Shown: positions 571 through 30,505 of the stretch, in pieces
Numbering within the stretch: position 1 is the first letter of the stretch
Layout: every line of letters begins with the position of its first letter
Assembly (NCBI GenBank): GCA_017462615.1
Contig: JAFTQT010000152.1
Span: 1-36,873, forward strand
Length of the DNA stretch: 36,873 nucleotides
Source of the DNA: Clostridia bacterium
GTDB lineage: Bacteria > Bacillota > Clostridia > Oscillospirales > CAG-272
Direction: 5' to 3'
Translations under genes and position numbers: made by a program
The notes under the pieces: generated by a model
Seen by the model: the letters and a program-made list of their open reading frames with translations, nothing else
Databases searched by the model: none
What the model was told of the DNA's origin: nothing

Positions 571-3500
571 ATGAAAAGAACAAAGCAAGCCGTTTGCCTG
601 CTTCTCGCGCTGCTGATGGTGGCGGGCACGCTGATGCTCCCCAGCGCGGCCGGTGAGAGCGGCACCAACGCGTCCGCTGTCGCAGGCACGGATACCGCCG
701 GTGCCTATACCAAAAAGGTGGTTTCCGTTTTGTATGATAACTCCTATTCCATGCTTTCTCAAGGACAGTATTATGCAAAATACGCCATCCAGGCGCTGGC
801 TGCGCTGCTCGGACCCGAGGACGCGCTGCTGATGACGCCCATGAACGTGCCCGGCTCCTTTGAGGAGGCCACGGATGACCGATATACCTACGAGGTGGAT
901 CTCTCGAAGGAGGATCGCAACACGCAGATCGCCAAAATGCTGACCGATTCCTTCCTCAGCTACGATCCCGACGGCTCCACGCCGTTCGAGCCCATCAACA
1001 TCACCATCCAGCAGCTGATCGATCGGGGCATGAAGACCCAGGCGGACGCCAGCTTTGAGGCCGGCAACACGGAGTATTGGCTGTTTGTGATGACCGACGG
1101 CGTGTTTACCACCAAAAGCACGCCGGAGGCGGTGGAGAGCGAATATGCTAAATACATCAAGAAATACAGTAATTTCCACATGGTGCATCTTGGCTTCGGT
1201 GACGGCGCCAAGGATATGAGCCGCCCGGTGGTGGAGGAGCTGAAGAACGCCGGCAATTACAGCGCCTATCACTCCAAGGATACCACCAAGCTGATGGCCA
1301 CCATGCAGTCCATTGCCAATCAGATCTCCGGCCGCTATACGGCGGATGCGGCCGTATATACCGCCAACGGCAATCAGATCACCGTGCATCTGGATAGCCT
1401 GCGCTTCGCAGTTCACAACCTCTCGCTGCTGGTGCAGAATGCCGACGGCGTATTACAAAGCGCCACCTACAAGGGGCAGGCGCTGCAGATCAGCCAGGCC
1501 TGCACCATCGTGGCGCCGGATTATCTGGTAAACAAGGAAGAAATGGGCAACGGCTACTCGGCCGTGATCAAGCCCGGTGCGGGACTCCTGAGCGGCGGAG
1601 ATATCGTGCTGACCTTTACGGCGCCCGTGGGAGACATTTCCATTATGGTGGAGCCGGCGCTGAAGCTGCGCACCGTCGTGGAGCGCCGGGAGGGCAACGG
1701 CTGGGTCCCCACCGACGAGCTTTACATCAATAGCTTCATGAAGGAGGGCGACCAGATCCGCGTGGACTACGAGGTCTACGAGGAGGGCAGCGGAAGCGTG
1801 CTGGAGCTTTCCGACATTTTCAATCCCATCGAGGAAAGTGTGACCTACGCCGGTCACGCCTATCAGCCCGGCGACTCCATATCCCTGGTGGAGGGCAATC
1901 ACGAGATCCTTGTCAACGTCAGTGCCATGAACGGCACCTATCAGCTTTACGATTCCTTCAGCTGCATCGTGTGGAAGGAGCCCACGAATTTCCGTATCGA
2001 GGGCGTGGCAAGCTCCACGGATGGCGGCAAGGGCAACGCTTACGACCTGTTCTTTACCGTGATCTATGAGGGCAAGCCCCTCTCCGCGGCAGAGCTTGCG
2101 GCCTATACCTGGCTGGTGAAGGGAACCGACGCCAAGGGCGATCCCATTTCGCTTTCACCGCAGGTGACCGCCGACGGCAGGATCAAGGCTGCCGTCAATC
2201 TTTCCTCCTTGCCGGCAGGTGACGCGGTGTTTTACGCCAAGGTTACCTCACCCCAGGGCTTCGTGCGTGAAACCACGCTGAAGCTGAAGGCGGTGGCCGA
2301 TCTCAAGCTGCACCTGACGGTGGAGCGTCGGGAGGGCAGCGGCTGGGTGGAGGCCGAGCGGCAATACATCCATCGCTATATGAAGCCCGGTGACGAGCTG
2401 CGCGCCACCTACCGTCTGTACGACGAGGAGCGGGGCGCTTACGTGAACGCGGCCGACGTGATGGGCTCCTATACCGAAACGGTGACCTATGCCGGCGGCA
2501 CCTATCAGCCCGGCGCACCCTTCCCGCTTTCGGCGGGCAAGCACGACGTGACGGTGACGGTACGCTCCGATGACGGCGCATACGTGCTGACGGGCAGCTT
2601 CTCCTGCACCGTGCTTTCAAGCACGACGGATTTCCGCATTGAGGGAAGCGATACCGTGGTTGACCAGGGACTTGGCCTGCGTCACAACGCCACCTTCCTG
2701 GTTTACGTCAACAACAAGCCCCTTACCGCGGCGGAGCTGGCAGGCTACAGCTGGCAGATCACCGGTAAGGACGCAAACGGCACGCCCTTAACGCTGCAGC
2801 CCGCAGCCCAGGGTGACGGCAGCATTCTGGTGCCGCTGGATCTGACCAACATGCCCTTCGGCAAGCTGCGCCTGGAGGCAACGGTGACCGATCCCGACGG
2901 ATTTACCCGGGATACGGTATTGGAAATCACCCATGAGCCAAAGAGCATCACCGCTGTGGTGGTCGGCGCCGATCGCCTTTCCAAGACCCAGTATCAGCTG
3001 ACGCAGAACGCCGACGGCTTCGCCTTCGCGGTGGACGTTGCCTCAGCCGGAGGTGGCACGAGGCTGAGCCCCGCTCTTTATACCTACAAGGTAACGGTAA
3101 AGGGCAAGGACGTGACGAAATACTGCACCGTTGAGGGGGATAACGTCGTATTCGTGCCTACCAAGGAAAGCCTTGGCGAGCTGACGGGCCAGCTTGGCGA
3201 CCTGGAGGTGCTCTTTACCGCGCAGGTCACGGCCTCGCCCGATCTTACGGACAGCGCCACCGCCACCCTGGCCATTGCCACCACTGTTTACGAGGTGATC
3301 GTTTCGGTGGACGGAGAGGGCGTGGATCCCTTCCGCGTGAAGGACGACGAGCTGTATATTTACGTTACCGTGAGAAGAGACGGTATCCCGCTTTCGTCCG
3401 AGGAGCTGCTTGCCGCTAAGGAAAGCGGCGCGCTGGATATCCGGGTGCAGGGCGGCTTCCTGCGCAACCGCTTCGGCTTCTTCAAGGTGCTGGACGCCGT

Positions 3501-4293
3501 GGAGGATCACGACGGTATGCCCGCGCTGCGCATTGCACCCTGCCACGATAAGGCGTGGCTCGCTTACTGCATCACCGGCATGGTGGCCTTCCCCGGAGAG
3601 CGCACCGTTCACGCCACCTATCAAGGCGCTGCGGGCTCGGATGGCTACGAGATCTTCCATCCCGGCGCGCTGGCCTATATCCTGCGTTTGCTCATCTATT
3701 TCCTGATCCTGCATATCGTGATGCTGATCGTGGGCTACCGCCGCGTGGATCGCTTTGCGCCCGGCCGCTATTTCCGCGTCAGCATAACGCTCAACGATCA
3801 CAATGTGATCCTCAACGCCAACGTTGGCAGACCCCGCGACGTCAATCGCACCTTCTTCAGCCGGATCCTGTGGCGCCGCCTGTTTATCCCCTGCGTATAT
3901 TGGTTCCGCGGCACGCAGAAGCTGGAGATGGAAAACGGCAACGTGGTGCTGACGGCAACGGGTATGCGGTCGCCCAACGTCCGCATCAAGTACAACAATC
4001 GCTTTGCCGGGTCGTTTTTGGCAGCGATGAAGGTGGGTGACTATCCGGACGTGCCCAAGATCCAGGCCCGACTGCGCAACGGTCAGTATAACGGCCAGGA
4101 TCTGAGAAAAATGTCCATCGGCTTTGAGGAGCGCCCGCTCTTCAAGGTGACGGAGCAGTCCGGTAAGAGCACGCCCAAGCGGCAAAACGACGCCTTCCGT
4201 AATCTGAGCGATTTTCGGAATCCCATCTGTATCAAAAAGACCGGAAGTGCCCGCAGCACGACGTATATTCTGATCTTCTATATTCCCGATTGA
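571..4293 (+). CDS. Secreted VWA-domain protein with tandem beta-module repeat and C-terminal membrane anchor
   Basis: This 1240-residue protein has an N-terminal signal peptide (basic MKR, then a hydrophobic core to about residue 24, and LPSAAG before the likely cut). A VWA domain follows (about 48-250) with a complete MIDAS metal site: DNSYS (D56, S58, S60), T137 in DGSTP and D176 in MTDG. Residues 364-577 and 578-790 are a tandem duplication of a 214-residue module starting LKLxxxVERREGxGW, probably beta-sandwich. One membrane helix (about 1032-1054) is followed by a basic tail of about 185 residues, predicted cytoplasmic. This topology puts the metal-binding VWA face outside the membrane and the tail inside, next to the tubulin-like products. 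The start is ATG 571 because AAAGGA (559-564) lies six bases upstream; an in-frame GTG at 517 has no such site and would bury the signal peptide. The ligand is unknown. VWA proteins next to FtsZ-like genes are known from genome-context work. Confidence 0.9.
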   Translation: MKRTKQAVCLLLALLMVAGTLMLPSAAGESGTNASAVAGTDTAGAYTKKVVSVLYDNSYSMLSQGQYYAKYAIQALAALLGPEDALLMTPMNVPGSFEEATDDRYTYEVDLSKEDRNTQIAKMLTDSFLSYDPDGSTPFEPINITIQQLIDRGMKTQADASFEAGNTEYWLFVMTDGVFTTKSTPEAVESEYAKYIKKYSNFHMVHLGFGDGAKDMSRPVVEELKNAGNYSAYHSKDTTKLMATMQSIANQISGRYTADAAVYTANGNQITVHLDSLRFAVHNLSLLVQNADGVLQSATYKGQALQISQACTIVAPDYLVNKEEMGNGYSAVIKPGAGLLSGGDIVLTFTAPVGDISIMVEPALKLRTVVERREGNGWVPTDELYINSFMKEGDQIRVDYEVYEEGSGSVLELSDIFNPIEESVTYAGHAYQPGDSISLVEGNHEILVNVSAMNGTYQLYDSFSCIVWKEPTNFRIEGVASSTDGGKGNAYDLFFTVIYEGKPLSAAELAAYTWLVKGTDAKGDPISLSPQVTADGRIKAAVNLSSLPAGDAVFYAKVTSPQGFVRETTLKLKAVADLKLHLTVERREGSGWVEAERQYIHRYMKPGDELRATYRLYDEERGAYVNAADVMGSYTETVTYAGGTYQPGAPFPLSAGKHDVTVTVRSDDGAYVLTGSFSCTVLSSTTDFRIEGSDTVVDQGLGLRHNATFLVYVNNKPLTAAELAGYSWQITGKDANGTPLTLQPAAQGDGSILVPLDLTNMPFGKLRLEATVTDPDGFTRDTVLEITHEPKSITAVVVGADRLSKTQYQLTQNADGFAFAVDVASAGGGTRLSPALYTYKVTVKGKDVTKYCTVEGDNVVFVPTKESLGELTGQLGDLEVLFTAQVTASPDLTDSATATLAIATTVYEVIVSVDGEGVDPFRVKDDELYIYVTVRRDGIPLSSEELLAAKESGALDIRVQGGFLRNRFGFFKVLDAVEDHDGMPALRIAPCHDKAWLAYCITGMVAFPGERTVHATYQGAAGSDGYEIFHPGALAYILRLLIYFLILHIVMLIVGYRRVDRFAPGRYFRVSITLNDHNVILNANVGRPRDVNRTFFSRILWRRLFIPCVYWFRGTQKLEMENGNVVLTATGMRSPNVRIKYNNRFAGSFLAAMKVGDYPDVPKIQARLRNGQYNGQDLRKMSIGFEERPLFKVTEQSGKSTPKRQNDAFRNLSDFRNPICIKKTGSARSTTYILIFYIPD

Positions 4294-4351
4294 CCGGAAA
4301 CGAAAGCCCTTTGACTGACAAACCTCAAAAAACAGAAGAGAGGTGACCTGT

Positions 4352-7300
4352 TTGAAAAATATCCTTCTGATCGGCGTAGGCGGCACGGGTGGTGAAACCG
4401 TGCGCATGCTGTATCGGAAAATCGATCAACTTGGCAACCGCACCGACAACCGCATTATGGCGCTGCTTTTCAATATGGATACGGGCAAGATCAACCCCAT
4501 TGAGGGGGTTCCCAGTATCTGTATGACAGACGACGTGGACGTGGGCCGTGTCTGCGACCGTATTGGCGCGGAGCGGCTGAACGACTGGTTCCGCAGCGAG
4601 GAGGAGGAGATCCGGAGTCAGAGCATGACCTTCGGCGTATCCCTGTGGCGAAAAAAGGCGTATCTCGCGTTCCTGAACATGATGTATAAAAAGGAATCCC
4701 GCATCGCCTTCCACCGTGCCATGGAGCAAATGGCCAATTCCGAGCCCGGCTCCTCCTTTGAGATCTATCTCATCTCCTCCATTGCCGGCGCCACGGGTAG
4801 CGGTACCTTTCTCCCCATTGCGCTGTACGCGCGACGGTATATCCGTCAGCATCTGGGCATTACCCCGGCTGTCAGCGCGATGATCACCTGCCCGGATATC
4901 TACGCGGATTATCTGGTGTCGGAAAACGTGGATAAGGCCTATGCCAACTCCTACGCCGCCATGCGAGAGCTGAACGCCATCAACCAGGTGGCCCGCAGCG
5001 GATGCAACCGGAAAAATAATCTGAAAAAGACCTCCGTTCGCTTCAAGCTGGGCTCCGAGGATGAGCCGGTGGTGGGAGTCCTGTTCGATTCTACCGATAA
5101 GCGCTATTGGCGCCCCGACGCCGCGCCCTTTGATAAAATATACGTGCTGGATCGCATCCCCGGCGTGCATACCATCGAGGAGCACTACGTGGTGCTGGCC
5201 GACTCCCTTTACACGCTGATCTGCACCAACGTGGGCAGAGCCGTGGATGCGGAAATGTCCAACCACATGACGCTGACCTCGCAGAACAACGGTGGTAACG
5301 CCATCTTTTCCAGCATTTCCACCGCGCGGATCAAGTTTCCTTCGGATACGATCCTCGAATACCTGGCTGCCGAGCGTACCCAACGGGTCTGCAAGGATCA
5401 ATGGCTGACGCTGCACAATGAAACGGCACGCCGCATTGAGGAAAAGCGCCAGCGAGCCGTGGAAAAGCAGGAGGTCTTCTCTCTCAGCGAGGCCGACTAC
5501 GCCGCCATCTTGCTGGAGGCGCTGGAGGAATACGAGGAGACCGACAGCGGCGTGATGGAGATCGTCAACCGTTGGACGCGATTGCCCGCCGGCTACAGCG
5601 GTGCCGCTGCCAACAGCGCCGAGGCCTACTTTATGGAGCTTCGCCGCATGATCGGTGAGCGCGCCAGCAACCCCGGCAGCATCACGGCTATGCTGGAGGA
5701 TGCTACGCCCGAGGCGTTTACGGTAGAGGACGAGGGCGACCAGCTGTACGGTCAATTCCTTTCCAAAAAGAAAAATAAGCACCCGGAGCGGATGGTGCGC
5801 TTCTGCACCTACGTGCAGGAGACTATCCAGGGATTTTACGGGGAATGTCTGGAGACCGTTCGCAAGAGCGAAGCCGGTATTTGCGACGCGGTGCTGACCT
5901 TTGATGAAACCAAAAACCCCCGTGGGCATAAGGAGCTGTCGCTGGCAGAGCGGATCCTCATTCGGGACGACAAATTCATGCACCCCGTGGCCGCCATGGT
6001 ACAGCTTTGCCGCCTGCGTCAATATCTGCAAAAGCAGCTGAAGGGCTCAAGACCCGGGCTGGAGCTGACCCCCTTCGGCAGAGAGAAAAAGGTGCCCGAC
6101 GCCTTTTACGTGGAGGGTGAGCCCCCCGCGGTGCCGGTGCGGATGCGAAAGAGCCGCTATTGGCATATTGGCGAGGATCTGACGCCGGAGACGAGGAATC
6201 TGCGTATCCCGCACTTTGAGCAAAGCTTTGAGCGCTATTGCAAAAAGGCCAGCGCCGACGAATATCTGGATTTCGAGGCGCTGCGGACGGATGCCATCGC
6301 CACCGTGGAGCATATTGCAGAGGTGGCGACGGAAAATCTGCGCTATCGGGTATATAAGCGCATTGCTGCGCGACTGGACCTGCTCATTAAGCATTACAGA
6401 AGATTTTTCGATCGCTTCGTGGAGGTGGAGACCGACGCCCGCGCCGATCTCGACTATCTGAAAAAGCGAGATGGCGGCAGGATCGGTAGCATTATCAACG
6501 TCTGCGCCGGAGAGGCCGACAAGAGCCGTATTCTCGAAAGCGTATTCGGGGAGAGCGGCGCGGATCGCAGGGAGGACGTGGAGCGTGCCGATAATATTGC
6601 CGGCAGCGGCGTATTCGGCATTGCCATGCAGAGCGTGCGTGAGGAGCAGGAGGAATCCGGCGGCAACAAGGATGACCGCAACGTGGTGCGTCGCCTGCTG
6701 GACAACATGAATCAGGATCACAAGAACGTGATCCGCCAGAACGCCGAATTCAGACGCATCTCCTCTATGTCCGTGATAGAGGCGCTGGAGGAGGCCTGCG
6801 GCAAGCACTTCCTGGAGCCGGACGCCTTCCGGAGCAACCTGGACCGTCGGGTAGATGAAACGTTCATCTCGGCGGTGGAGCTTGCTTCTCCCACGCTGCA
6901 GATCGAGGCTACCCGAGCCGACGAGGAGGGAACGATCCAGCCCTCGGAGATCTGGCGCGTGCTGATGTCCGTGGAAACCGCGCGTCATATCAAAAAGAAC
7001 AGCGCGTGGTATCACCTGCCCGTGCAGGACGACGTGACGGAGGAGGTTGCCATCCGGTCGTTGGCGGAGGAATTTGTGAAAAAGCACGTGCATCCGAGAG
7101 CCAACGTGTCCGTGGTGAAGGACATGCCGGATAACGTGATGTACGTGACCGGTGAGCTGATGGATATCACCCCCGTGCGCATTGCCAAGATCAACGAGAT
7201 GAGCCGCATCCCCGGCTACTACACCCATTACTGTCGCGTTTTGGATATTAGACGGGAAACGGGGCTGGATATCTGGAATCCCCACCTGGGCTTTGATTGC

Positions 7301-8284
7301 GACAAGCGCGCCGTGCTGCCCTATATCAACGAGGAAATGGACCGCGGCTTTGACAGCCGCGTGGTGAAGGCGCTGCTCTATGCCTTCCTGGAGGGCAAGA
7401 TCACCATTGCGCACTTCGACGAGTCCAGGCGGGAAAAATTCCGCTTCATTCTTCACGATCGGGGCGAGCCGCAGGTCTGCAGGTGGGATGAGGACGAGAT
7501 CGGTGAAAACAACGCGTCGCTGCTGCTTGCTCTGATGCGTGAGGATGAGATCCGCGTGGACGCCTGGAGCCGAGAGCTGGATCGCCGTATTCAGCGGGAG
7601 CTGAAGACACTGCCCAACGCGTATTCCTCCGATCACGTAAAGCGCTTGAACCGTGCCATCGCGGAGATACCGCTCATGAAGATCCTGCGAGAGGGCATTT
7701 GCCCCCTGGACGGTGCGAAAAACGCCGGTAAGCGGGTGATGACGATCTTCGACTTTGCGGACATGATCAAGCGCAGCGAGGAGGCAAGACGGGATCAGAA
7801 CGATGCCGAAAAGCTGCTGTGCACCACCTTTGAGCTGTTTGAGCAGATCTGTCTCACGGCTGCCCGACCGGATATCAATCTGGAGATCGCCGTGGACGTC
7901 TATACCGACCAGCTGGAGCGGCTGTACGGCCAATTTGAGCAGATGCTGCTGCAAAAATACGAGCTTCTGCCCAAAAAATCCGCACGGGATGCATCCGCAG
8001 AAGAATCGGTGGAGGAGGGAAGCGACGGGGAATCCCCCCAAACGGGTGGGAAATCCAAGGGCACGGAGGCCTCTGTGTCCGCCGCGGTGCTTGCCAAGCG
8101 ACGGCTCTCCTTCCGCAATCATCTGTCCCGCGTGCTGGAGTGGGCCGTCAACGAGGTGGGTGCGTTCCGCCCCGTGGATCTGACCGCTCCCCTCGACGAG
8201 GAGGATTCCTTCCGGTACATGATCCTGAAGGATCCTTACAACTGGATGGCGGCGCTGGATGACGATAAAAAGCCGCGCAAGTGA
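4352..8284 (+). CDS. Tubulin/FtsZ-superfamily (Tubulin_2-like) protein, copy A
   Basis: This is a 1310-residue protein. The N-terminus reads MKNILLIGVGGTGG (GxGGTG at 8-13), the first nucleotide-contacting loop of the tubulin/FtsZ fold. GATGSG at 146-151 occupies the place of the tubulin signature GGGTGSG. The fold is therefore a GTP-binding tubulin-like domain followed by about 900 residues of mostly helical, charged sequence of no recognised family. A low-complexity linker (about 1208-1250) precedes a short conserved end. It aligns along its whole length with the next gene, for example DxWNPHLxF, LPYIN and VKALLYAxxEGK. Copy A has an Ala in the signature and FNMDTG where copy B has FDTDKG, so its nucleotide handling may differ. 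I chose TTG 4352 as the start: AGAGAGGTGA (4337-4346) sits at the right distance and the protein then begins exactly like copy B. The GTG at 4343 lies inside that site. Confidence 0.88.
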   Translation: MKNILLIGVGGTGGETVRMLYRKIDQLGNRTDNRIMALLFNMDTGKINPIEGVPSICMTDDVDVGRVCDRIGAERLNDWFRSEEEEIRSQSMTFGVSLWRKKAYLAFLNMMYKKESRIAFHRAMEQMANSEPGSSFEIYLISSIAGATGSGTFLPIALYARRYIRQHLGITPAVSAMITCPDIYADYLVSENVDKAYANSYAAMRELNAINQVARSGCNRKNNLKKTSVRFKLGSEDEPVVGVLFDSTDKRYWRPDAAPFDKIYVLDRIPGVHTIEEHYVVLADSLYTLICTNVGRAVDAEMSNHMTLTSQNNGGNAIFSSISTARIKFPSDTILEYLAAERTQRVCKDQWLTLHNETARRIEEKRQRAVEKQEVFSLSEADYAAILLEALEEYEETDSGVMEIVNRWTRLPAGYSGAAANSAEAYFMELRRMIGERASNPGSITAMLEDATPEAFTVEDEGDQLYGQFLSKKKNKHPERMVRFCTYVQETIQGFYGECLETVRKSEAGICDAVLTFDETKNPRGHKELSLAERILIRDDKFMHPVAAMVQLCRLRQYLQKQLKGSRPGLELTPFGREKKVPDAFYVEGEPPAVPVRMRKSRYWHIGEDLTPETRNLRIPHFEQSFERYCKKASADEYLDFEALRTDAIATVEHIAEVATENLRYRVYKRIAARLDLLIKHYRRFFDRFVEVETDARADLDYLKKRDGGRIGSIINVCAGEADKSRILESVFGESGADRREDVERADNIAGSGVFGIAMQSVREEQEESGGNKDDRNVVRRLLDNMNQDHKNVIRQNAEFRRISSMSVIEALEEACGKHFLEPDAFRSNLDRRVDETFISAVELASPTLQIEATRADEEGTIQPSEIWRVLMSVETARHIKKNSAWYHLPVQDDVTEEVAIRSLAEEFVKKHVHPRANVSVVKDMPDNVMYVTGELMDITPVRIAKINEMSRIPGYYTHYCRVLDIRRETGLDIWNPHLGFDCDKRAVLPYINEEMDRGFDSRVVKALLYAFLEGKITIAHFDESRREKFRFILHDRGEPQVCRWDEDEIGENNASLLLALMREDEIRVDAWSRELDRRIQRELKTLPNAYSSDHVKRLNRAIAEIPLMKILREGICPLDGAKNAGKRVMTIFDFADMIKRSEEARRDQNDAEKLLCTTFELFEQICLTAARPDINLEIAVDVYTDQLERLYGQFEQMLLQKYELLPKKSARDASAEESVEEGSDGESPQTGGKSKGTEASVSAAVLAKRRLSFRNHLSRVLEWAVNEVGAFRPVDLTAPLDEEDSFRYMILKDPYNWMAALDDDKKPRK

Positions 8285-11300: not shown

Positions 11301-12148
11301 CTACGCTTGAGGCAGAAAACGACAAGAAGCTGGTCAAGGCTCTGCTGTACGCGCTCATCGAGGGCAAGCTGACCTACCACAAGCCTCTGCGTCAGCCCTT
11401 GGCCTTCCGCTACTTTGTGGATGGCGTGGAGCGTCAGATCATCGACATGGACGGCCAGGTGGTGGACGAAAAGAACCTGTCCGCGCTGGTCAGCTGGCTG
11501 CGTCCGCAGGCTGCTCTGATCGACGAGTGGAGCGGCGCCTTCGACGCCAACATCAAGGCACAGCTCAGTGCGCTGCCTCAGGTGACCTCCACCGAGGATC
11601 TGCCTCTGCTGGAGGCACGCATCACCACCTCCGAGTACATCTCCGTGATGCGTAAGAACCTGTTTGCCAAGATCAACGCCAGCAAGGACGAGAAGAGCAG
11701 AACCGACATGAGCCTCATCGAGTTTGCTTACGCCATCAAGACCAGCGAGGAGGCGACCCACGACTGTGACGACGCCGAAAAGATCCTTGCCGTTGTCTTT
11801 GAGATCTTCTGCAGCTTCTGCAGCTTCCGCCTGCCCATCGTGAAGGATTCCGGCCGCTATGCCAGCGTTTACACGCAGCAGCTGGACGGCTTCATGGAGG
11901 ACATGCGCAAGAACGTGATCGCCAACGCACGCAAGGGCACCGATGAAAAGAAGGGCAGTGCCGAGTCCAAGGTTGAGGCCATTTGCGAATGGGTCAACAG
12001 CACCGGCACCTTCCGCAGCATTTCCGAGCAGAATATGTTCAATGCCGACGGCAGCATCCGCTATGAGCCGTATAAGTTTGCCCCCAAGGCAAAGGATACC
12101 AAGAGCAAGGCCAAGGCCGATGCCGCAGATACTACCGCTGAGGAGTAA
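8348..12148 (+). CDS. Tubulin/FtsZ-superfamily (Tubulin_2-like) protein, copy B
   Basis: This 1266-residue paralog of the preceding gene starts at ATG 8348, with AGGAG (8334-8338) nine bases upstream. GxGGTG at 8-13 and the canonical signature GGTGSG at 146-151 show a tubulin/FtsZ-type nucleotide fold. The motifs fall at exactly the same residue numbers as in copy A. The rest, to about 1230, is a large helical extension shared with copy A, and the last 30 residues are a lysine/alanine/glutamate-rich tail, a type often seen on polymerising tubulin/FtsZ proteins. I could not identify a confident T7 catalytic loop by eye, so GTP hydrolysis on polymerisation is not proven. Copy B keeps the better nucleotide motifs and is the likelier active subunit. 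The 63-nt gap from copy A contains no terminator. Confidence 0.9.
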   Translation: MKNILLIGVGGTGSNAVDMLYRKIATLGKNADNKITALVFDTDKGDIEKISSATAIPMADNRLVGSICDSIGAESLREWFPYKDENVRAQEMIRGASQWRKKSFLAFVNLMNKPQLRSAFHNALDDMRDSNPSSSYEIYTIASIAGGTGSGSFIPITLYAKKYIKEKLGRDVQSSAVLACPDIYSEVQTSLDNKTKVYSNAYAILRELNAINLVTHGYNMPSASAKDHHPPVRLRIGHETSPVGLLFDASKEAFWEPGAAPFNKVFLLDKIPGLNSIQAHDVVLANSLYTVLCTEIGSSIDSEVSNHAMLNTQNNGYNAIYAGIATSELRFPVDSVLDYMAHRKTLEASNEEWMIIHRDTEMRIREEQKIAKESRRVYTENEGDYADKYLISVREQMEDPNSNLAEIIRRGTEIIRVVDGKSDSEKRIDGYVKRLLAELKGRLPSGEEQRSKYVNPADFALAKAKAFESADRKREHLEEFVSNVVTPAVLDLTEYYKDCATVIHNTANSLADNILTFDPHKELNGNETLSLVGNLLMNGTRYIHPVAGMVQLCALQKELRSHINYGVSEWTDLRRCEAIAELPVDFYTANEDGVSVDPRAAKKSAYNQLGNERMQKIATNGGDEYTNLGKSDTSADLVLFLADVSATIDTIKDGARVQLLNLVLKKVCSRLEALITQYRRFFNNLEEERENLREKTETALRANGGNSGSVINVASDVKSKLRMFEQLNEVGSAPSMEDILNVENIAGKGVFDMAYASVQDSLDAASGKTNFRKEGFSSLFDGMIKSYREQISRSQAYQKLAGRNVFEIIAENCGKRATKDEILRAEQRVISSLIELARPSLMVDNYRPDDGTPPPSTVTVILMSSKIARYLKRNAAAFELSVDDDKNEDAASRACAEQFIVNAGGYGVRIAIVDEIPANVVYVTSEIIDVQPTHISKIDETSANSVYFNYYKSAVNNMERYETDMWNPHLSFNLHKRGYLPYINPTLEAENDKKLVKALLYALIEGKLTYHKPLRQPLAFRYFVDGVERQIIDMDGQVVDEKNLSALVSWLRPQAALIDEWSGAFDANIKAQLSALPQVTSTEDLPLLEARITTSEYISVMRKNLFAKINASKDEKSRTDMSLIEFAYAIKTSEEATHDCDDAEKILAVVFEIFCSFCSFRLPIVKDSGRYASVYTQQLDGFMEDMRKNVIANARKGTDEKKGSAESKVEAICEWVNSTGTFRSISEQNMFNADGSIRYEPYKFAPKAKDTKSKAKADAADTTAEE

Positions 12149-12206: not shown

Positions 12207-12224
12207 TAAGAAAGGGGACAGCCT

Positions 12225-14168
12225 ATGCTGACCTATGTGATCAATACTTCTGAAAACAAAACCTTTGATAACAACCTGCTCTTTGAGCTGGTTGGGTATT
12301 CCCAGATTCGCTGGAAGCATTGCAGCCTCCAGGGGATCGACCTTTGCGCGGAGGAGATCTGCGATGAGGAGCGCTCCAAGATCCTGAGCACGGGAGAATA
12401 CCGCATCATCGTTTTGGTGGATTTTTTTGGATTCCCCAAGACCGATCCCTCGGAGACCGAGACCGCCAGCGAATACGTGGAGATCTATAAGGCCTTTATA
12501 GAGCACTATTTGCTGATGCATCTGTTCAATCCCTTAAAGCAGCAGAACATTCCCGCAAAGGCTTGCGAGATTTACTATATTCAATACGTGCCCTACGAGC
12601 CGCTGTCCATCAATAATATGGCAATGGTGCAGACGGCGGATCTTCTGGGCCTTACCGACGTGGCAGAGGAGCTGCGCCGGAACATGAAGAATGGGGAAGA
12701 GGAGTGCTACGAGGCCACGGAGCAGAAGCGTGACGCCTTCCGGCTGCGCTGCGCCGGTGACGTGGTGCTGCCCATCTGCTTTGGAAAGGATTTTCGCAAT
12801 CCCAAGCCCGCCTCCTTCCGTGAGCTTTACAACGCCTTCATCAATCATCGGGATGACGCGCGCAAGTTCGGCGTCGTTACCCACAAGCCCTACGTGACCT
12901 TTGGTGACGCCAGCCGCGCCGCCTATGACGCGCTTTCCCGCTCCCTTTACTTGGTATATCTTTACGAGCGCCGGGATAACGTGACGCCGGATACGGAGAG
13001 CCCCCGGGTGGATGATAAGGCCTTTGTACAGCTGCTGCGCAGCTCTCTGCGCAAGATCCATTCTGCCCGCAGCGTGGCGCTGAAGAACGAGAGCCATTAT
13101 TACAGCCTGGATTTTGAAAGCAGCATCGACTTCAAATCCGGGAAGACGGAAAGCAAGAAGGAAGAGAAGAAGGCAAAAGAAAAGAAAATGACCGAGAAGG
13201 ATAAGTTTGATGAAATATGCAGGCTTGCCGATCGGAGCGAAAGCGCGCAGAGCGAGGAGCAGCAAAAGCAGCTCCACGATATGATGAAGCAGTATCTTGC
13301 CCGGCGGGACGAGGTGCGCGCGCGTATTCAGGATATTTATGAAAAGGACCGCATGGAGATCGACGAGTCCGCGGCAGATAGCCCCCATACCGTAAAGCAA
13401 TGCCCCTCGGATATTGACCGCAAGCGGAAGATCAAGGAAAAGGAAACCGAGATCTCCCAGCTTTTGGGCAGCGCGCTGGAGGCTGACTTCCACATGCAGG
13501 ACTACAGCGCCGAAAAGGAAAAGGCCGTTGTCATTTACAAAAAGCTCAAGCAGGCAAAGGCCTGCCAGACCAAGAATATTTTCGGTGATATTCTGATGCT
13601 TTTGATGGTGATCGTCTCTATGGGCGTGCCCTACCTGCTTTTGCAGCTCACGTCCCTTGCCTCCAAGCCGGCGGCAGCCATATTGCTGGGCATTTCCTCC
13701 GGCATTTTCGGCGGGCTTTTCGTGTTCCTGTTTTTGACGAGGCTGGCGGCGTCGGTTTCGGAGATCCGCCGCTATCGACTGCAGTTGAGCCTGCTGTACA
13801 ACCAATGCATGAAAAAGAAAAACGCCGCCATGGATGCGCTGCACAAGCGGTATGACCACGATCTGCTGCACATCGAGCTTCTGCGGCAGAATATCCGCGA
13901 GATCGAGCGCCGTGACCGCCTCAACCGGGAAAAGAACCGGCACGTGGAGATCCACCGCGAGAAGCTGGAGGAGGTTGAAAACCTGCTGAGCAGTATGCTG
14001 AACAGCTTCGGTGAGCGGGTGGATCTGACGCAGCTGGAGGACGTGCGGGACGAGTTCCGCATCGATAAGCCCATCACGGCAGCGGAAAACAAGATTTATA
14101 AGATTTTCTCGATGGATGCCATCGACAGACTGTTCAAGCAGAAGGGAGGGGAAATGCGGCATGTATGA
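12225..14168 (+). CDS. Unknown coiled-coil protein with a two-helix membrane hairpin
   Basis: I do not recognise a family for this 647-residue protein. The N-terminal ~300 residues look globular (alpha/beta), with no visible nucleotide-binding motif. A lysine/glutamate-rich helical stretch (about 305-450) leads to two closely spaced hydrophobic helices (about 453-473 and 485-510). After that comes a long amphipathic, probably coiled-coil segment (about 515-600) and a short conserved-looking tail. A hairpin in the membrane with both charged arms on the same side would place nearly all of the protein in the cytoplasm, next to the tubulin-like proteins. This suggests an anchor or adaptor, by inference only. 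The start ATG 12225 has AAAGGGGA (12211-12218) six bases upstream. Its last eight bases overlap the start of the next gene, so the two are translationally coupled. Confidence 0.85.
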   Translation: MLTYVINTSENKTFDNNLLFELVGYSQIRWKHCSLQGIDLCAEEICDEERSKILSTGEYRIIVLVDFFGFPKTDPSETETASEYVEIYKAFIEHYLLMHLFNPLKQQNIPAKACEIYYIQYVPYEPLSINNMAMVQTADLLGLTDVAEELRRNMKNGEEECYEATEQKRDAFRLRCAGDVVLPICFGKDFRNPKPASFRELYNAFINHRDDARKFGVVTHKPYVTFGDASRAAYDALSRSLYLVYLYERRDNVTPDTESPRVDDKAFVQLLRSSLRKIHSARSVALKNESHYYSLDFESSIDFKSGKTESKKEEKKAKEKKMTEKDKFDEICRLADRSESAQSEEQQKQLHDMMKQYLARRDEVRARIQDIYEKDRMEIDESAADSPHTVKQCPSDIDRKRKIKEKETEISQLLGSALEADFHMQDYSAEKEKAVVIYKKLKQAKACQTKNIFGDILMLLMVIVSMGVPYLLLQLTSLASKPAAAILLGISSGIFGGLFVFLFLTRLAASVSEIRRYRLQLSLLYNQCMKKKNAAMDALHKRYDHDLLHIELLRQNIREIERRDRLNREKNRHVEIHREKLEEVENLLSSMLNSFGERVDLTQLEDVRDEFRIDKPITAAENKIYKIFSMDAIDRLFKQKGGEMRHV

Positions 14169-17100
14169 ATTTCTGAAGGTCTTTATCATTGCCTGTATTC
14201 TGTTGATCCTTTCGTACCCCATTCTCCCCTTTTACTCCAGGGCAAGGCGTTTTTCCACCTTTTATTCTCTGCGCTATCAGGCACCCCATAACAAAAAGAA
14301 TCTGCCCTTCCTCTTTTTGACGATCCTGGAATTTGCGGTGCTGGTGGTGACCTTCGGGCTCCTTTCCGACGTGGTGCGCTTCGTTGGCGGACTGCCTTAC
14401 GTAAGAGACGTGCTGGATTTCATCGGCAGTCGCATCCAATTCGACGTGATCGTGTTCGTCAGCGTGCTGCTGATCAATTTCGTGATCTTGTACGCCTTCG
14501 TGTTCCTGAAGGGGCTGCTGAAGCGGTTGGTTTTCGACCGCATCTGGGGCATGCGTCCTGCCAAAAAGCCCCGCAAGGGTGAGAGCGCAGAAGGCGACGA
14601 GGCGGACGAGACCCCTGACGACGATGATCAATCTCCCTCGTTCGTGCACAGCGAGGATGAGGAAAATCCGGAAAAAGTGCCGGAACGGGATGAGAATTCC
14701 TTCTCTTATCGGGTGTATCGCTTCTTTTGTCGCCCGTTCTTCCAGGGAGAGGGCTTCCGCTACGCGCGCCCTTGGGTCATCCGGACGGTGGCGGTGCTGC
14801 AGACCTTTATTTACATCGTAGAGGCTGCCTATTTCCTGCTTTTCGCGCTGTTCCTTTTCGCCGCCTTCTTTGAAATGCCCGATGCGGTATACAAGCTTCT
14901 GATGAAGGTTGTGCCCAACATCTTCCTGTACCCCTTCGTGTCGCTGATCTTCCTCCAGGAGATCTGCAATACGCTCCGCTCCGAAATGGAGACCGTGACC
15001 GTGGAGACCGAGGACGTGGCGGAGGAGGAGAAGAAGCAGATCGAAAAGAAAAAGCGGGCGCTGAAGCGCCTGCACGCGGAGCTGGTGCGCAAATACACCG
15101 ATACGCACAAGCTGCGCTATTACGAGGTCACCACCGCCAAGAACGTGCCGGTATATAAGCCTACCAACGTGATCTATGAAAAGGCGCTGCAGTTTGTGCG
15201 TACCAGCATGATGAACGCCTCCGGGCACGTGGTGGAAAGCTATATGCGGGGCGTGGATGCGCTGCTCAACGACAACAACGTGTATTTTGGTGCCTCCTTC
15301 TACTCGGAGCTTGGCGAATACCTCATTTCCTATACCTATATCCGCCTTTTGGCCGGCGAACGGTTGGTTTTCGTGGTTTCTACCCGTGAGGAGGCGGAAA
15401 ATCTGAAGAAATTCGTGGGTCGCAGACTGAATCAGCTCTCCGGCTTCCAGAATCAGACCTCCTGGCGTATTCGCGACGGGCAGGACCGCCTGGATCAGGC
15501 GGACGTGCTGATTGCCGTTCCCGCAGATTTCAGCGGAGACAATATCGTAGAAAACAACCCTGTTTTCTTTGAAAACGTATGCAACGCCATCTTCATTGAG
15601 GCGGACAGGATCCTGAATCTGGATAGCTACCTGTGCACCATCATCGCCAACCGTCTGCGCAACGCCACGGGCAGAGAGATCTGCTTCGTATTTCTGACCA
15701 CCCACATCTGCCAGGGCCTTGTCAAGAGCATCAAGAAGTTTTTCAAGACCACCAAGGATATCGTGGAGTGCAACAGCGCCGACGAAAACGAGGACGTGAC
15801 CTTCATGCTTTGGAACTGCGAGACCGACGGCATCTACGAGCGCAACGGTCAGCGGGTGGAAACGCCGGAAATGCTGATCGCCACCGCCGCGCACGACGCG
15901 GACGTGGACGGCATCCGTATGATCACCTCCTCGCCCCTCAGCATGGAGAAGATGGTGGCGCTGCGCAATCATCGCGTGGAGATCAACGAGATGAAAAAAG
16001 AGGTCCCCGAGGTCAATTATATGATCTGCGTGGACGACAACTTCAATCTGGCCTCCGCCATCTACGCCTACACCCGCTTCCGGGGCAAGCAGGCCTCCAT
16101 GGTGCATATTCTCAGCAAGCCCTATCTCCTGCGGGAATATTTCGCCTCCCGCGCCAAGGAATACGTCAATCGCTCCGCCTTCATCAAGCCGCGCGTGGCC
16201 GAGCACGCAGACGAGCAGAAGCTTTTGCTGCTGGATCTCTTCTGTGACGCGACCCGCAGCGTGGAGGGCATGAAGCTTTCCGAGTACACGGAGCGCATGA
16301 AGTGCATCATCAAGGAATACAGCGACAAGCCCGACGAGAACGCTGCCGGCGAGCAGAAGACCCTGTACCAGATCTTCAAGGAGCGCGAGTTCGACTGCGA
16401 GGAGCTGGTGGGCTATATGCTGGAGGTGCTGCGGGGCAAAAAGCCCCACCATCGCGGTGAAAAGGAATGGACGGGCTACAAGAGCTGCTACCGTCTGACC
16501 AGCAACAAGGAGGATCGTGGCTATCAGCTCAAGGAGACCAACTACATCGCCTTCCTCTTCGTTGAGCGCGTGTTTGAGGAGCTGCTGCGCTGCAACCGCA
16601 GAGCCGAGCTTTGGCTCAACGGCCGCGTGATCGGCTATCTTGATACCTTCGCCAGCCGCCTGCACCAGCAGTACGTGCCCGGTCAGAGCATCGTTTATAG
16701 AAACTGTGAGTACGAGGTGGAGCGCATCTTCGTCCCCCAGACAGAGGAGGAGGAAAACGAGCCTGCAAGACTCTATTTGCGCCAGGAAAACGTCACCTTC
16801 AAGAATTGTCTGGATACGGTATTCCTGCGGCGCTACACCGTAGCGCAAAGAAAAGAGCGCAAGGACTTTTCCGGCGTCATGCATTATACCCGCGGCACGC
16901 TGGAGCGCATCACCGTTACCATGTATAACGCTAAGGTGACCGGCGAGACCTACGGCTTCTATAGCCTGATGAGCGATACGCAGACCCTGGACTTTACCCG
17001 CACCGTGCAGGGCAACCCGGCGCTTGATGAGGACGTGGTGAGCATGATCCGCCGTAACGTGGAGCACGCGCCTGTGCTTTCCGTGGAGATCAAGTCCCGC

Positions 17101-19905
17101 GAGGCCTGCAACGACGGCATGCGCCGTCTGCTTGCCACGGTGCTCAACGAGTATTTGCGCACCATGTTCCCCACGGTCTACCGCTGCGTGGCGGTGGTGC
17201 CCGTGCTGCAGGAGCCCTACGACCCTGCCACCTCCTTTGCCGAGGATCACTTCCAGCACGACGTTGCCGGACTTTACCCGTATCTGATCGGTGAATGTGA
17301 GCAGGATGAGCACACCGTGCGACTGCTGATCGTCAACGACTGCGTTGAGGACGTAGGCGTGCTGGACGTGCTTTACGACGGTGCTGCTCGCATCGTGGAG
17401 GAGCTGCTGTCCTACGTTTATAGTTATTTGAAGTGGCTGCAGGAGCATCCCGGCTCCGTGGGCGACCAGAAGCACTACATCTACTTCGGTGGCGAGACGC
17501 TGCCTGTCGTCTATGATTTGGAAAAGACGGTGGCGCTGCTGGAAAACTGCGCCCGCAAGTTCATGAGCACCGGCGCGGGCGATCGCCTGATGCCCGAGGA
17601 TGAGGAGGATGTGCAGGAGAAGCGCTGCGCCTTCTGTCACGGACTCCTGGAGGAGGGCAGATATTCCTCCTTCGGCCAGAACCGATACATCTGTATCTCC
17701 TGTGAGGCAGAGGCGGTGACGGACGAGACCGAGCTTGCCCGTATGGAAAAAGTGGCCAAACGGTATCTGAAAAGCAAGTATCCCGCCGTCAATTTCCCGG
17801 AGGATGTTACCTTCAAGCAGGATGGCATCTACGCCCTTTCGCCCGGCGCGGTGCTCAACGAGTTCTATTATAAGATCGATACCGATACCCGTCAGGTGCT
17901 GGTGGAAAAGGACGATCCCGCCACAACGGTCATCGTTTCCGTGCTGCACAGCCTGATCTTCTTCTGGCAATTTGATCGCAAGTGCTGGAATCACGAAAAC
18001 TACCGTGTTTCCGGATATCTGACGGCGCAGATGTACTACGAGGAATTCGCGTATCTGAGATCTCACGGTCACGAGGGCGCTGAGGCCTGGCTGCGTGAGC
18101 ATATCGACGCTGCCATCCGTGAGCAGCTGACCGAGCTGGAGCAGTATCTGGCCGAGCACGAGGGCGCCACCTCCTTTGACTTCATCGAGGCCAAGATGAA
18201 GGAGAATATGGTGGAGGATCGCACCGGCGACGGTGAGGGCGACACGCTCTTTGATCCCGACCGCGTGCCGCGCTTCTGGAAGCGCTTCCTGTATCTGGAT
18301 CCCGACGCCGTGGAGGATGACGAGGACAACGTCAACACGGGCGAGGACGACGATGAGGAGGACGTGTTCGGTGAGGGCGACAATGCCGACGGTGAGGATA
18401 CCACGGCAGAGGCGGCGGAGGATGAGGACCAGCACATGGCACCGCCTCCCGGCAGCGAAGCCGACGATGAGGCGGTCGACGACGCTGATCCCACCGACGA
18501 CACCGATCCTACTGACGACATCGACCCCGCCGACGGCGAGGAAACGCCCCGCGAGCGCCGCAAGCGTGAGCGCTTGGCCAAGAAGGCCCAGCGTGAGGAG
18601 GCAAAACGCAAGAAGCGGGAGCAGAAGGAGCTGGAAAAGCTTCGCCGCAAGCGCCAGAAGGAAGATCCCGACGGCGCGGAGGATGCGGACGTATTGCCCC
18701 CCGAGGACGATACCGATACCGGTGACGGGGACCCCACCGATACCAAGTCCGGTAAGAAAAAGACCAAGGAAAAGAAGAAAAAACCCTTGGTGCGCGGTAT
18801 CAAGAGCGGCGAGGAGATGATCCCCTTGGAGGACGAGGAGAACATCAACCCGTACCTGGCGCTCTATAACCGCATCGCCCGCGCTGCCTTTGATTTCGAT
18901 CAGAGTGAAATCGAGCTGCCCTATCGGATGCACATTGACGAGGTGCGTCGCATTTACTACTACGTGATGTACGACTACCCCGAGATCTTCTGGATCAAAA
19001 CCTTCAATTATACCCACAACGGTGATCACGTGGTGCTGAGCATGCGGCTGCTCTTCCGTTACGAGAAGCCCGACGGCTCCATTGACGTGTCGCTGATCAA
19101 GCGTTATCGCAAGGAGATCCGGGAAAGCGCCTCCTACTTTACCAAGGGCATCTCCCGCAAGACCAGCCCGTATAAGGCGCTGCTGACGATCTACCGTCGC
19201 GTGGTGCTGGCCTTTGACTACGACCACGACGGCCTCAAGCGTCAAAAGAGCGGCCTTGGCCCCGGCGAAAACGTGGAGGACGAGCTGAGATCGCTGCACG
19301 CCGCGCTGGTGAAGCACAAGGTGGTTTGCGTCGGCTACGCGGTGGCCATGCAGTATCTGCTGCAATCCGTGGGCATTTGCTGTGCGCAGATCGTCAGCGA
19401 GACCCACTCCTGGAACGTGGTCAAGATCGGCGGAAACGTCTACCATCTGGATGCAACCTGGGGCGATCAATCCGGTGAGCAGTACAGAAACAGAGTGTTC
19501 TACGACTACTTCTGTATCACCTCCGGTGAGAATAACCGGGATGGCGCCACGCGCGTGCCGGATGTGAAGCTGTTTGGCGATCATACCAGCTTCACCGCGC
19601 AAAAGTACGAGTATTTCCGCTATCATAACGCGTACGTTACCCGTTACGACGAGGCCAAGATAGCACGGATCCTGGCAGACGGTATTCTGCGCAAGGAGCC
19701 CTGCATCGGCTTCCGTTGCTCCTCCCAAACGCTGTTTGATACCGTCTACGCAAGGCTGAAGAACGGGCGGAAACCGGTGCTGGAGCAGGAGGTACGCAAG
19801 CTGGTGGCTGTGAAGAACAAGCGTCTTGCACGTCGGATCAGCTTCGGCTCCTGGGTGTCAAATTCCAAGCAGTACACCTTCTATTTCGTGGATTGCTTGA
19901 AATAA
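14161..19905 (+). CDS. Giant membrane protein: 5 TM, degenerate helicase-like core, zinc ribbon, transglutaminase-like domain
   Basis: This protein has 1914 residues. Five hydrophobic helices lie at about 5-25, 49-70, 94-118, 207-237 and 250-267. Residues ~355-640 resemble a superfamily 2 helicase core with degraded motifs: VFVVSTREE (403-411), DVLIAVPADF (448-457), IEAD (479-482) in place of DEAD and FLTTH (511-515) in place of SAT; no GKT P-loop is visible. Residues ~817-850 and 1006-1110 recall the post-helicase and DUF1998 parts of YprA/MrfA-type helicases (weak, by eye). A zinc ribbon has C1156, C1159, C1178 and C1181. Alternating acidic and basic linkers span ~1383-1545. The C-terminus is transglutaminase-like with C1723 (VCVGYA), H1749 (THSWN) and D1764 (HLDATWG), a complete triad. 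The start ATG 14161 follows AGGGAGGGGA (14143-14152) and overlaps the previous stop. Likely role: membrane-tethered effector or scaffold with a peptidase or crosslinking domain. The substrate is unknown. Confidence 0.85.
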   Translation: MYEFLKVFIIACILLILSYPILPFYSRARRFSTFYSLRYQAPHNKKNLPFLFLTILEFAVLVVTFGLLSDVVRFVGGLPYVRDVLDFIGSRIQFDVIVFVSVLLINFVILYAFVFLKGLLKRLVFDRIWGMRPAKKPRKGESAEGDEADETPDDDDQSPSFVHSEDEENPEKVPERDENSFSYRVYRFFCRPFFQGEGFRYARPWVIRTVAVLQTFIYIVEAAYFLLFALFLFAAFFEMPDAVYKLLMKVVPNIFLYPFVSLIFLQEICNTLRSEMETVTVETEDVAEEEKKQIEKKKRALKRLHAELVRKYTDTHKLRYYEVTTAKNVPVYKPTNVIYEKALQFVRTSMMNASGHVVESYMRGVDALLNDNNVYFGASFYSELGEYLISYTYIRLLAGERLVFVVSTREEAENLKKFVGRRLNQLSGFQNQTSWRIRDGQDRLDQADVLIAVPADFSGDNIVENNPVFFENVCNAIFIEADRILNLDSYLCTIIANRLRNATGREICFVFLTTHICQGLVKSIKKFFKTTKDIVECNSADENEDVTFMLWNCETDGIYERNGQRVETPEMLIATAAHDADVDGIRMITSSPLSMEKMVALRNHRVEINEMKKEVPEVNYMICVDDNFNLASAIYAYTRFRGKQASMVHILSKPYLLREYFASRAKEYVNRSAFIKPRVAEHADEQKLLLLDLFCDATRSVEGMKLSEYTERMKCIIKEYSDKPDENAAGEQKTLYQIFKEREFDCEELVGYMLEVLRGKKPHHRGEKEWTGYKSCYRLTSNKEDRGYQLKETNYIAFLFVERVFEELLRCNRRAELWLNGRVIGYLDTFASRLHQQYVPGQSIVYRNCEYEVERIFVPQTEEEENEPARLYLRQENVTFKNCLDTVFLRRYTVAQRKERKDFSGVMHYTRGTLERITVTMYNAKVTGETYGFYSLMSDTQTLDFTRTVQGNPALDEDVVSMIRRNVEHAPVLSVEIKSREACNDGMRRLLATVLNEYLRTMFPTVYRCVAVVPVLQEPYDPATSFAEDHFQHDVAGLYPYLIGECEQDEHTVRLLIVNDCVEDVGVLDVLYDGAARIVEELLSYVYSYLKWLQEHPGSVGDQKHYIYFGGETLPVVYDLEKTVALLENCARKFMSTGAGDRLMPEDEEDVQEKRCAFCHGLLEEGRYSSFGQNRYICISCEAEAVTDETELARMEKVAKRYLKSKYPAVNFPEDVTFKQDGIYALSPGAVLNEFYYKIDTDTRQVLVEKDDPATTVIVSVLHSLIFFWQFDRKCWNHENYRVSGYLTAQMYYEEFAYLRSHGHEGAEAWLREHIDAAIREQLTELEQYLAEHEGATSFDFIEAKMKENMVEDRTGDGEGDTLFDPDRVPRFWKRFLYLDPDAVEDDEDNVNTGEDDDEEDVFGEGDNADGEDTTAEAAEDEDQHMAPPPGSEADDEAVDDADPTDDTDPTDDIDPADGEETPRERRKRERLAKKAQREEAKRKKREQKELEKLRRKRQKEDPDGAEDADVLPPEDDTDTGDGDPTDTKSGKKKTKEKKKKPLVRGIKSGEEMIPLEDEENINPYLALYNRIARAAFDFDQSEIELPYRMHIDEVRRIYYYVMYDYPEIFWIKTFNYTHNGDHVVLSMRLLFRYEKPDGSIDVSLIKRYRKEIRESASYFTKGISRKTSPYKALLTIYRRVVLAFDYDHDGLKRQKSGLGPGENVEDELRSLHAALVKHKVVCVGYAVAMQYLLQSVGICCAQIVSETHSWNVVKIGGNVYHLDATWGDQSGEQYRNRVFYDYFCITSGENNRDGATRVPDVKLFGDHTSFTAQKYEYFRYHNAYVTRYDEAKIARILADGILRKEPCIGFRCSSQTLFDTVYARLKNGRKPVLEQEVRKLVAVKNKRLARRISFGSWVSNSKQYTFYFVDCLK

Positions 19906-30501: not shown

Positions 30502-30505
30502 ACAG

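What the first reader, a model, noticed from the sequence alone, without database searches (positions are those of the whole stretch)
571..19905. 19-kb VWA / twin tubulin-like / membrane coiled-coil / pseudo-helicase-transglutaminase cluster
Five large genes share one direction, one strong promoter and a closing terminator. The last two overlap by eight bases. Together they offer an outside metal-binding VWA face, an inside pair of tubulin/FtsZ-fold proteins, a membrane hairpin adaptor and a very large membrane effector. VWA plus FtsZ-like genes have been proposed to be a membrane-remodelling system (Makarova and Koonin, 2010); I know of no description of this expanded composition. Joint function is inference from synteny.
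Basis: partly seen in the sequence, partly recalled or inferred. Interest (0 to 1): 0.93.

Follow-up and report, generated by a model that had tools for sequence, protein, structure and literature searches.

The report
Membrane-bound tubulin machine with dead helicase
This bacterial gene cluster, kept in the same gene order in many related genomes, encodes two tubulin-like proteins, a VWA-domain protein, a coiled-coil protein with a predicted membrane hairpin and a giant membrane protein whose middle is predicted to be a helicase fold and lacks the usual catalytic motifs; together they likely form one machine at the cell membrane that would help the cell resist invaders such as viruses.

Summary
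Five co-directional genes (571-19905) form one operon-like block with a promoter-like site before it, a two-way terminator after it and an 8-nt overlap of the last two genes. The 'pseudo-helicase' is predicted to be a YprA/MrfA fold (Foldseek E 3e-18) without Walker A and DExH motifs in 105 of 105 sequences; the transglutaminase triad is intact in 75 of 75 that have it. In 17 of 20 twin loci exactly one tubulin keeps both nucleotide-loop motifs. YprA helicases are central to DISARM, Dpd and Druantia defence; some flanks carry defence genes and three Thermaceae plasmids carry vWA-tubulin-hypothetical-brxL. I favour a membrane-tethered defence machine over membrane remodelling; function is inferred. 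Ten literature searches listed no paper on this composition. New variant of the vWA-FtsZl1 kind.

The parts
441..469 (+). promoter-like site (TTGCAA-17-TATAAT, TG before second hexamer)
   Evidence: consensus match only
571..4293 (+). VWA protein: signal-peptide-like start, MIDAS DNSYS at about 736-750, one TM segment near the C-terminus, short tail predicted inside
   Evidence: orthologues match Pfam VWA
4352..8284 (+). tubulin-like protein A (FtsZl1/Tubulin_2) with altered T4 loop AGATGSG
8348..12148 (+). tubulin-like protein B with intact T1 GVGGTG and T4 AGGTGSG
12225..14168 (+). coiled-coil protein: N-terminal alpha/beta domain, TM hairpin at about 13584-13748, long helices
   Evidence: model pLDDT 89.4, pTM 0.76
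14161..19905 (+). giant membrane protein P5: N-terminal TM segments, then the domains below
15133..17553 (+). YprA/MrfA-type (DUF1998) helicase fold without Walker A or DExH motif (predicted)
17626..17703 (+). CxxC...CxxC putative zinc-binding cluster
   Evidence: 105 of 105
17941..18045 (+). degenerate HELTHxWQ metallopeptidase-like site (VLHSLIFFWQ)
   Evidence: intact in five more distant relatives
18772..19725 (+). transglutaminase-like domain; Cys at about 19327, His at about 19405, Asp at about 19450
19911..19946 (.). two-way terminator-like stem-loop closing the block

Best explanation
A conserved gene block encodes a VWA-domain protein, one or two FtsZ/tubulin-family proteins, a coiled-coil protein with a predicted membrane hairpin and a membrane protein whose middle is predicted to be a YprA/MrfA helicase fold and lacks the Walker A and DExH motifs, and these likely act as one membrane-anchored machine that would sense invading DNA or envelope attack and switch on an effector domain. 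Shown: gene order, co-inheritance, loss of the helicase motifs, retention of the transglutaminase triad, unequal decay of the tubulin pair. Predicted: folds and topology (VWA outside, the rest inside). Inferred mechanism: the outside VWA face and the YprA platform, which would bind nucleic acid without hydrolysing ATP, detect the insult; GTP-dependent assembly of the canonical tubulin, biased by its degenerate partner, clusters the complex through the coiled-coil hairpin protein; clustering releases the transglutaminase-like thiol enzyme (in another clade a HELTH metallopeptidase) on nearby proteins, so that the infected cell is shut down or the entry site sealed.
For: Component distances over 25 loci correlate at r 0.90-0.98, 0 of 2000 permutations as high. 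P5 core is a YprA/MrfA fold by model; YprA helicases are central to DISARM, Dpd and Druantia (PMC12458937 abstract and sections 5 and 7). GK[S/T] and DExH/D absent in 105 of 105; Cys-His-Asp kept in 75 of 75 sequences with the transglutaminase domain. HELTH intact in five relatives. Defence genes beside some cassettes: type IIG restriction enzyme, CARF-PDDEXK nuclease and IetA-like ATPases, unplaced HEC-06, Orf5 and PDC-M42A hits against none of these in controls. vWA-tubulin-hypothetical-brxL on three Thermaceae plasmids. Patchy distribution.
Against: No functional test. The window's own neighbours look like housekeeping genes (PADLOC was not run on them). PADLOC finds nothing in the five proteins (one Cas7 row at 0.036). 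Much of the flank signal is non-specific: one kinase, one RecQ-like helicase, mad3 (which the controls also hit). 30 of 105 P5 sequences lack the transglutaminase domain and, like the rest of that clade, HExxH, so no effector enzyme is recognised there. No relative in viral contigs and only one named plasmid with the set. The Thermaceae vWA protein shows no significant similarity to the cassette VWA profile.
Confidence: 0.4

Rival explanations
1. Membrane-remodelling or envelope-morphogenesis machine: tubulin-like polymers on the inner face bend or organise the membrane, positioned by the VWA protein, with P5 as structural anchor and cross-linking enzyme.
For: Proposed for vWA-FtsZl1 operons in 2010 (PMC2875224); membrane segments in three of the four components and none in the tubulins; the window's neighbours are not defence genes.
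Against: Does not explain a YprA/MrfA-type fold, the defence genes near some relatives or the patchy distribution (10 of 197 genomes of the order).
Confidence: 0.33
2. Surface cross-linking or adhesion apparatus: VWA binds a ligand outside and the transglutaminase cross-links surface proteins, with P5's large domains outside the cell.
For: VWA with signal-peptide-like start and MIDAS motif; transglutaminase triad intact; hosts named in 15 of 25 titles are ruminant-gut samples, where adhesion would pay.
Against: A helicase-type fold and a CxxC cluster are usual in the cytoplasm; two tubulins need GTP inside the cell; P5's loops near the membrane carry many basic residues.
Confidence: 0.1
3. DNA-segregation or plasmid-partition filament: tubulins move DNA held by the P5 platform at the membrane.
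For: Some FtsZl1 kin lie on plasmids; a fold of a DNA-binding helicase family is tied to the membrane.
Against: The window's cassette lies beside ribosomal-protein and metabolic genes; no relative in viral contigs; VWA and transglutaminase stay unexplained.
Confidence: 0.05

Closest known systems
FtsZl1-vWA predicted operons (Makarova and Koonin 2010, PMC2875224; parts 1 and 2 of 5 read)
   Same: FtsZl1-type tubulins with coiled-coil and helical tails next to a vWA gene and membrane proteins
   Different: Their operons carry GTPases, protein kinases or OmpA proteins; the two parts that I read name no YprA-type helicase fold and no transglutaminase
GAP1-N2 GTPase-centric systems of firmicutes (Kaur et al. 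2020, PMC7159879; section 29 and passages read)
   Same: Two tubulins with coiled-coil tails, a membrane vWA protein with vWA outside, predicted conflict role
   Different: Built on a GTPase and GAP1-N2 with two vWA genes; here one vWA gene, no GAP1-N2 in 15 genomes, and the coiled-coil hairpin protein and P5 instead
YprA/MrfA helicase family: DISARM, Dpd, Druantia, ARMADA (Bell et al. 2025 preprint, PMC12458937; abstract, sections 5 and 7 and passages read)
   Same: RecA1-RecA2 and DUF1998-type fold by model, 4-Cys cluster
   Different: P5 is membrane-anchored, has no Walker A or DExH, ends in peptidase-like and transglutaminase-like domains rather than a nuclease; tubulin, vWA, transglutaminase and transmembrane do not occur in that paper's main text
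MoxR-vWA-effector ternary systems (Kaur et al. 2020; also a passage in PMC12839542)
   Same: vWA plus an NTP-driven part plus peptidase-type effectors, rarely transglutaminase-like ones
   Different: No MoxR ATPase in the window's genes scanned; tubulins would supply the NTP step
Heteromeric tubulins: eukaryotic alpha/beta and bacterial BtubA/B (recalled; BtubA/B also in a passage of PMC9871819)
   Same: Two tubulins encoded side by side, possibly unequal in nucleotide handling
   Different: FtsZl1 proteins have no recognised FtsZ/tubulin C-terminal domain; no heterodimer has been shown

Membership tests
FtsZl1 (Tubulin_2, PF13809) | N-terminal FtsZ/tubulin GTPase-like domain over the family cut-off | tested here: met
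   106.4 and 125.4 bits against 27
FtsZl1 (Tubulin_2, PF13809) | GGGTG(S/T)G-type glycine loop intact | tested here: inconclusive
   Tubulin B AGGTGSG, tubulin A AGATGSG; 17 of 20 twin loci have one copy with both loops intact; the effect on GTP was not tested
FtsZl1 predicted operon (2010) | vWA gene beside the FtsZl1 gene | tested here: met
FtsZl1 predicted operon (2010) | GTPase, kinase or OmpA gene in the operon (frequent, not universal) | tested here: not met
   none among the window's five cassette genes
GAP1-N2 GTPase-centric system | GAP1-N2 protein | tested here: not met
   0 of 15 cassette genomes; control rings in Corynebacterium glutamicum; several genomes are incomplete
GAP1-N2 GTPase-centric system | GTPase with N-terminal zinc ribbons beside the tubulins | tested here: not met
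   no GTPase family in the window's genes other than the tubulins; not tested in the other genomes
YprA/MrfA helicase family | RecA1-RecA2 core with OB, connector and DUF1998 module | tested here: met
YprA/MrfA helicase family | ATPase motifs I and II | tested here: not met
   GK[S/T] 0 of 105, DExH/D 0 of 105; also absent in the Azospirillum P5
YprA/MrfA helicase family | 4-Cys zinc cluster of DUF1998 | tested here: inconclusive
   CxxC...CxxC in 105 of 105 and in L110, but it lies just beyond the stretch aligned to MrfA; lacking in G261 and Azospirillum
DISARM, Druantia, ARMADA | fused or neighbouring nuclease, methyltransferase or second helicase gene | tested here: not met
   none in the window
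Transglutaminase-like superfamily | Cys-His-Asp triad | tested here: met
   75 of 75 sequences with the domain, the window's included
Transglutaminase-like superfamily | Pfam Transglut_core cut-off | tested here: not met
   15.3 against 23 bits in the window; some relatives carry PF01841
HExxH metallopeptidase (gluzincin-like; name recalled) | HExxH | tested here: not met
   lost in the window and its clade, 0 of 105; AHELTHIWQ in G020, G187, G089, G507, G013
Anti-phage defence system | lowers infection by phage or entry of foreign DNA | not testable with these tools
   only genome context is available

The most novel reading that the evidence does not exclude
A new class of transmembrane immune machine: a heteromeric pair of bacterial tubulins, one with a canonical nucleotide loop and one decayed, carries a signal between an outside VWA sensor and a membrane-tethered, catalytically silent YprA helicase that recognises invading DNA where it enters, and unleashes a built-in transglutaminase or metallopeptidase. 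It would be a tubulin-based immune signalling polymer in bacteria and a YprA protein that works without ATP.
Probability: 0.27. Interest if true: 0.94.

Novelty: new variant of a known kind. Interest (0 to 1): 0.82.

Why it matters
The paper that described FtsZl1 tubulins in 2010 could only propose a role, and I found no later test of one. Here they are locked, in several bacterial groups, to a membrane-anchored protein that is predicted to carry the fold of a defence-linked helicase without its catalytic motifs, and to a transglutaminase-like domain with an intact triad. That makes the old question testable: a named strain with a complete plasmid sequence carries tubulin, P5 and VWA side by side (Azospirillum ramasamyi, NZ_CP029832.1). 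The unequal decay of one of two tubulins is a natural experiment on heteromeric tubulin outside eukaryotes.

Tried and rejected

One duplication with fixed positions for the tubulins was rejected by an AU test holding all second-position copies together (p 0.0079), with long branches as a caveat; the tree is a quick one. The strict T1 motif also fails in four single-copy tubulins (GGIG in G089, G187, G507, GGLG in G261), so a failed motif does not prove a dead GTPase. The flank test was first read as 58 against 2 PADLOC families and then cut back: ten proteins were named, and one kinase and one RecQ-like helicase account for many families; only 25 of the 58 families were listed. Specific hits are two placed proteins (type IIG enzyme in G020, CARF nuclease in G507) and one to three unplaced (HEC-06, Orf5, PDC-M42A, which are not among the 10 proteins or the 28). 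The flank set was 123 of 147 called proteins from 9 genomes, the control 121 of 148 from 8 of them (size limit; proteins over 1000 aa excluded; G127 has no control stretch).

The distance correlations have no housekeeping control and use P5 sequences some of which are cut by the end of the fetched stretch, so they show shared history, not joint function. E-values are for small protein sets. In one search rows that were also in the profile match by construction; the independent matches are, where the coiled-coil proteins of L110 and G261 were not detected by sequence and were assigned by position, length and two TM segments. The Azospirillum third gene has no significant similarity (0.065) and no TM segment by my hydropathy count, which is crude. 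L094 and L098 come from one MAG and may be two halves of one cassette, so the 25 loci stand for 24 MAGs.

Full report
WHAT IS THERE. One search lists the five ORFs on the + strand. Likely starts are ATG 571 (VWA), TTG 4352 (tubulin A), ATG 8348 (tubulin B), ATG 12225 (coiled coil) and ATG 14161 (giant protein, P5), each preceded by a ribosome-binding-like stretch. A promoter-like site lies at 441-469, no strong one inside, and a 15-pair stem-loop that reads in both directions closes the block at 19911-19946 before a convergent gene. The window is a whole contig of a genome that is 78% complete.

CONSERVED ORDER. Tubulin B finds kin in 10 of 197 genomes of the order, the own genome included. 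The surroundings show VWA - tubulin - coiled coil with two TM - P5, in that order and on one strand, in G127, G016, G120, G020, G187, G089, G507, G013, G261 and, with P5 cut by the contig end, G055; G152 is split over two contigs; in G080 the tubulin lies in another context, beside a 355-aa transglutaminase-like gene. A scan of named genome contigs with 42 tubulins returned 30 loci. Twenty-five are from Clostridia MAGs (24 MAGs; 15 titles name a ruminant-gut sample): all are consistent with the order, 17 with every component present (P5 often runs into the end of the fetched stretch) and 8 cut earlier by contig ends. Four loci outside Clostridia (L106-L109) hold a tubulin without the cassette. 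L110, a gammaproteobacterial MAG, has VWA - tubulin - 604-aa two-TM protein - P5. A tubulin search of plasmids led to Azospirillum ramasamyi NZ_CP029832.1, where tubulin - 711-aa protein - P5 - VWA follow each other (P5 1.1e-20 and VWA 4.4e-34 against L110 in a 14-protein set). Gaps between cassette genes run from -53 to +273 bases, taking the longest ORFs. Pairwise distances of the four components over 25 loci correlate at r 0.90-0.98, and at 0.88-0.97 for the four pairs tested within the 18-locus twin clade, with 0 of 2000 permutations as high each time. The P5 core is rare: in 391 genomes of the class the sound matches are G000, G013 and G507, fragments in G266 and G559 and a distant form in G261; in 398 of the phylum G000 and G013; in 274 Gammaproteobacteria only the query's own genome.

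THE TWIN TUBULINS. In the named Clostridia loci two tubulins are the rule: 22 of 25 show at least two tubulin ORFs and the other three are cut by contig ends. The 10 unnamed loci and L110 have one. In 20 loci with two comparable copies, the window included, exactly one has both loop motifs intact in 17, both in 3, none in 0. In the window tubulin B is the intact one and tubulin A carries AGATGSG; among the other 16 one-intact loci it is the first copy in 14 and the second in two (L092, L096). The quick tree of 58 tubulins separates a fast second-position clade of 17 rows from a clade of the 25 Clostridia first-position copies plus four second-position ones, tubulin B of the window among them; one clade for all second copies is rejected (p 0.0079), with long branches as a warning. 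The pattern fits a pair in which one partner keeps the canonical loops and the other is freed, in either order.

COILED-COIL PROTEIN AND VWA. The coiled-coil protein has 118 database matches, itself included. Its model (pLDDT 89.4, pTM 0.76) shows an N-terminal alpha/beta domain and very long helices around the hairpin; there is no trustworthy PDB match. VWA proteins have DxSxS in 24 of 25 cases.

NEIGHBOURHOODS. The window's own neighbours are a ribosomal L1 gene, metabolic genes and unknowns. In relatives, one protein family with weak, sub-cut-off RyR matches lies near the cassette in five loci (1.3e-5 and 0.0022 in the two scanned); in L091 an IetA-like ATPase, this protein, VWA and tubulin run in one direction with short gaps. 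G507 has a CARF-PDDEXK nuclease (6.5e-39) and G020 a type IIG restriction enzyme. PADLOC at E <= 1e-15 gave 58 families for 123 flank proteins and 2 for 121 control proteins from the same contigs, but many of the 58 come from one kinase and one RecQ-like helicase, and mad3 is hit in the controls too; HEC-06, Orf5 and PDC-M42A remain as unplaced specific hits. Three Thermaceae plasmids carry vWA-tubulin-hypothetical-brxL (in one an insertion sequence lies before brxL), with DUF1156, Swt1-HEPN, RecQ or exonuclease genes near in one or more of them. In Azospirillum sp. TSA2s a tubulin lies among caspase-family and OmpA genes, the older OmpA-type context.

READING. I commit to a membrane-tethered conflict (defence) machine: sensing by VWA outside and by the silent YprA platform inside, coupling by a GTP-driven tubulin assembly through the coiled-coil hairpin protein, output by the transglutaminase-like enzyme or, in another clade, the metallopeptidase. 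Order, co-inheritance and motif patterns are shown; folds and topology are predicted; sensing, coupling and output are inferred. The main rival, membrane remodelling, is not excluded.

COMPARISON WITH THE LITERATURE. Makarova and Koonin 2010 (parts 1 and 2 of 5 read) described vWA-FtsZl1 operons with GTPases, kinases and OmpA proteins. Kaur et al. 2020 (section 29 and passages) described firmicute systems with two coiled-coil tubulins and a membrane vWA protein around GAP1-N2, which 15 cassette genomes lack. Bell et al. 2025 (preprint; abstract, sections 5 and 7, passages) surveyed nearly 52,000 YprA homologues; tubulin, vWA, transglutaminase and transmembrane do not occur in its main text (supplements not seen). 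A 2026 BREX survey (passages by term) has no tubulin; passages of PMC8195603, PMC9871819 and PMC11090510 gave no match either. Ten paper searches listed no paper on this combination; they cover openly licensed PubMed Central papers only. Hence a new variant of the vWA-FtsZl1 kind, with a membrane-anchored, catalytically silent branch of the YprA fold.

Noticed in passing
L144 8294-16371, L145 7392-15351, L146 7363-16455 (Thermaceae plasmids): vWA - tubulin-like - hypothetical - brxL in three plasmids, near DUF1156, Swt1-HEPN, RecQ or exonuclease genes: a vWA-FtsZl1 module joined to a BREX-type gene.
   Followed up: partly
L021 15444-17216, L027 3670-5412, L075 89-1924, L085 4131-6122, L091 4628-6637: A protein family with weak RyR-domain matches (two members scanned, both under the Pfam cut-off) near the cassette in five loci; in L091 co-directional with an IetA-like ATPase just upstream of VWA.
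   Followed up: partly
L018 5642-7165 (G120), L104 688-1935, L023 9037-10104 (G080): Separate transglutaminase-like genes close to the cassette or to a tubulin.
   Followed up: no
L147 8947-12591 (Azospirillum sp. TSA2s plasmid p2): Tubulin-like gene among caspase-family, OmpA and DUF4384 genes.
   Followed up: no
L099 4082-7890: The first tubulin is split into two overlapping ORFs (895 and 379 aa) while the second is whole.
   Followed up: no
window 19997-21826 (-): Convergent 609-aa protein with a 12-of-12 promoter match at 21930-21902 and only sub-cut-off matches to Response_reg_2 and TrkA_N.
   Followed up: no
window 25995-36680: P-type cation ATPase, SPFH/Band 7 protein, DUF4097 protein, and a pyruvate-formate-lyase-like gene next to a radical SAM gene.
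   Followed up: no
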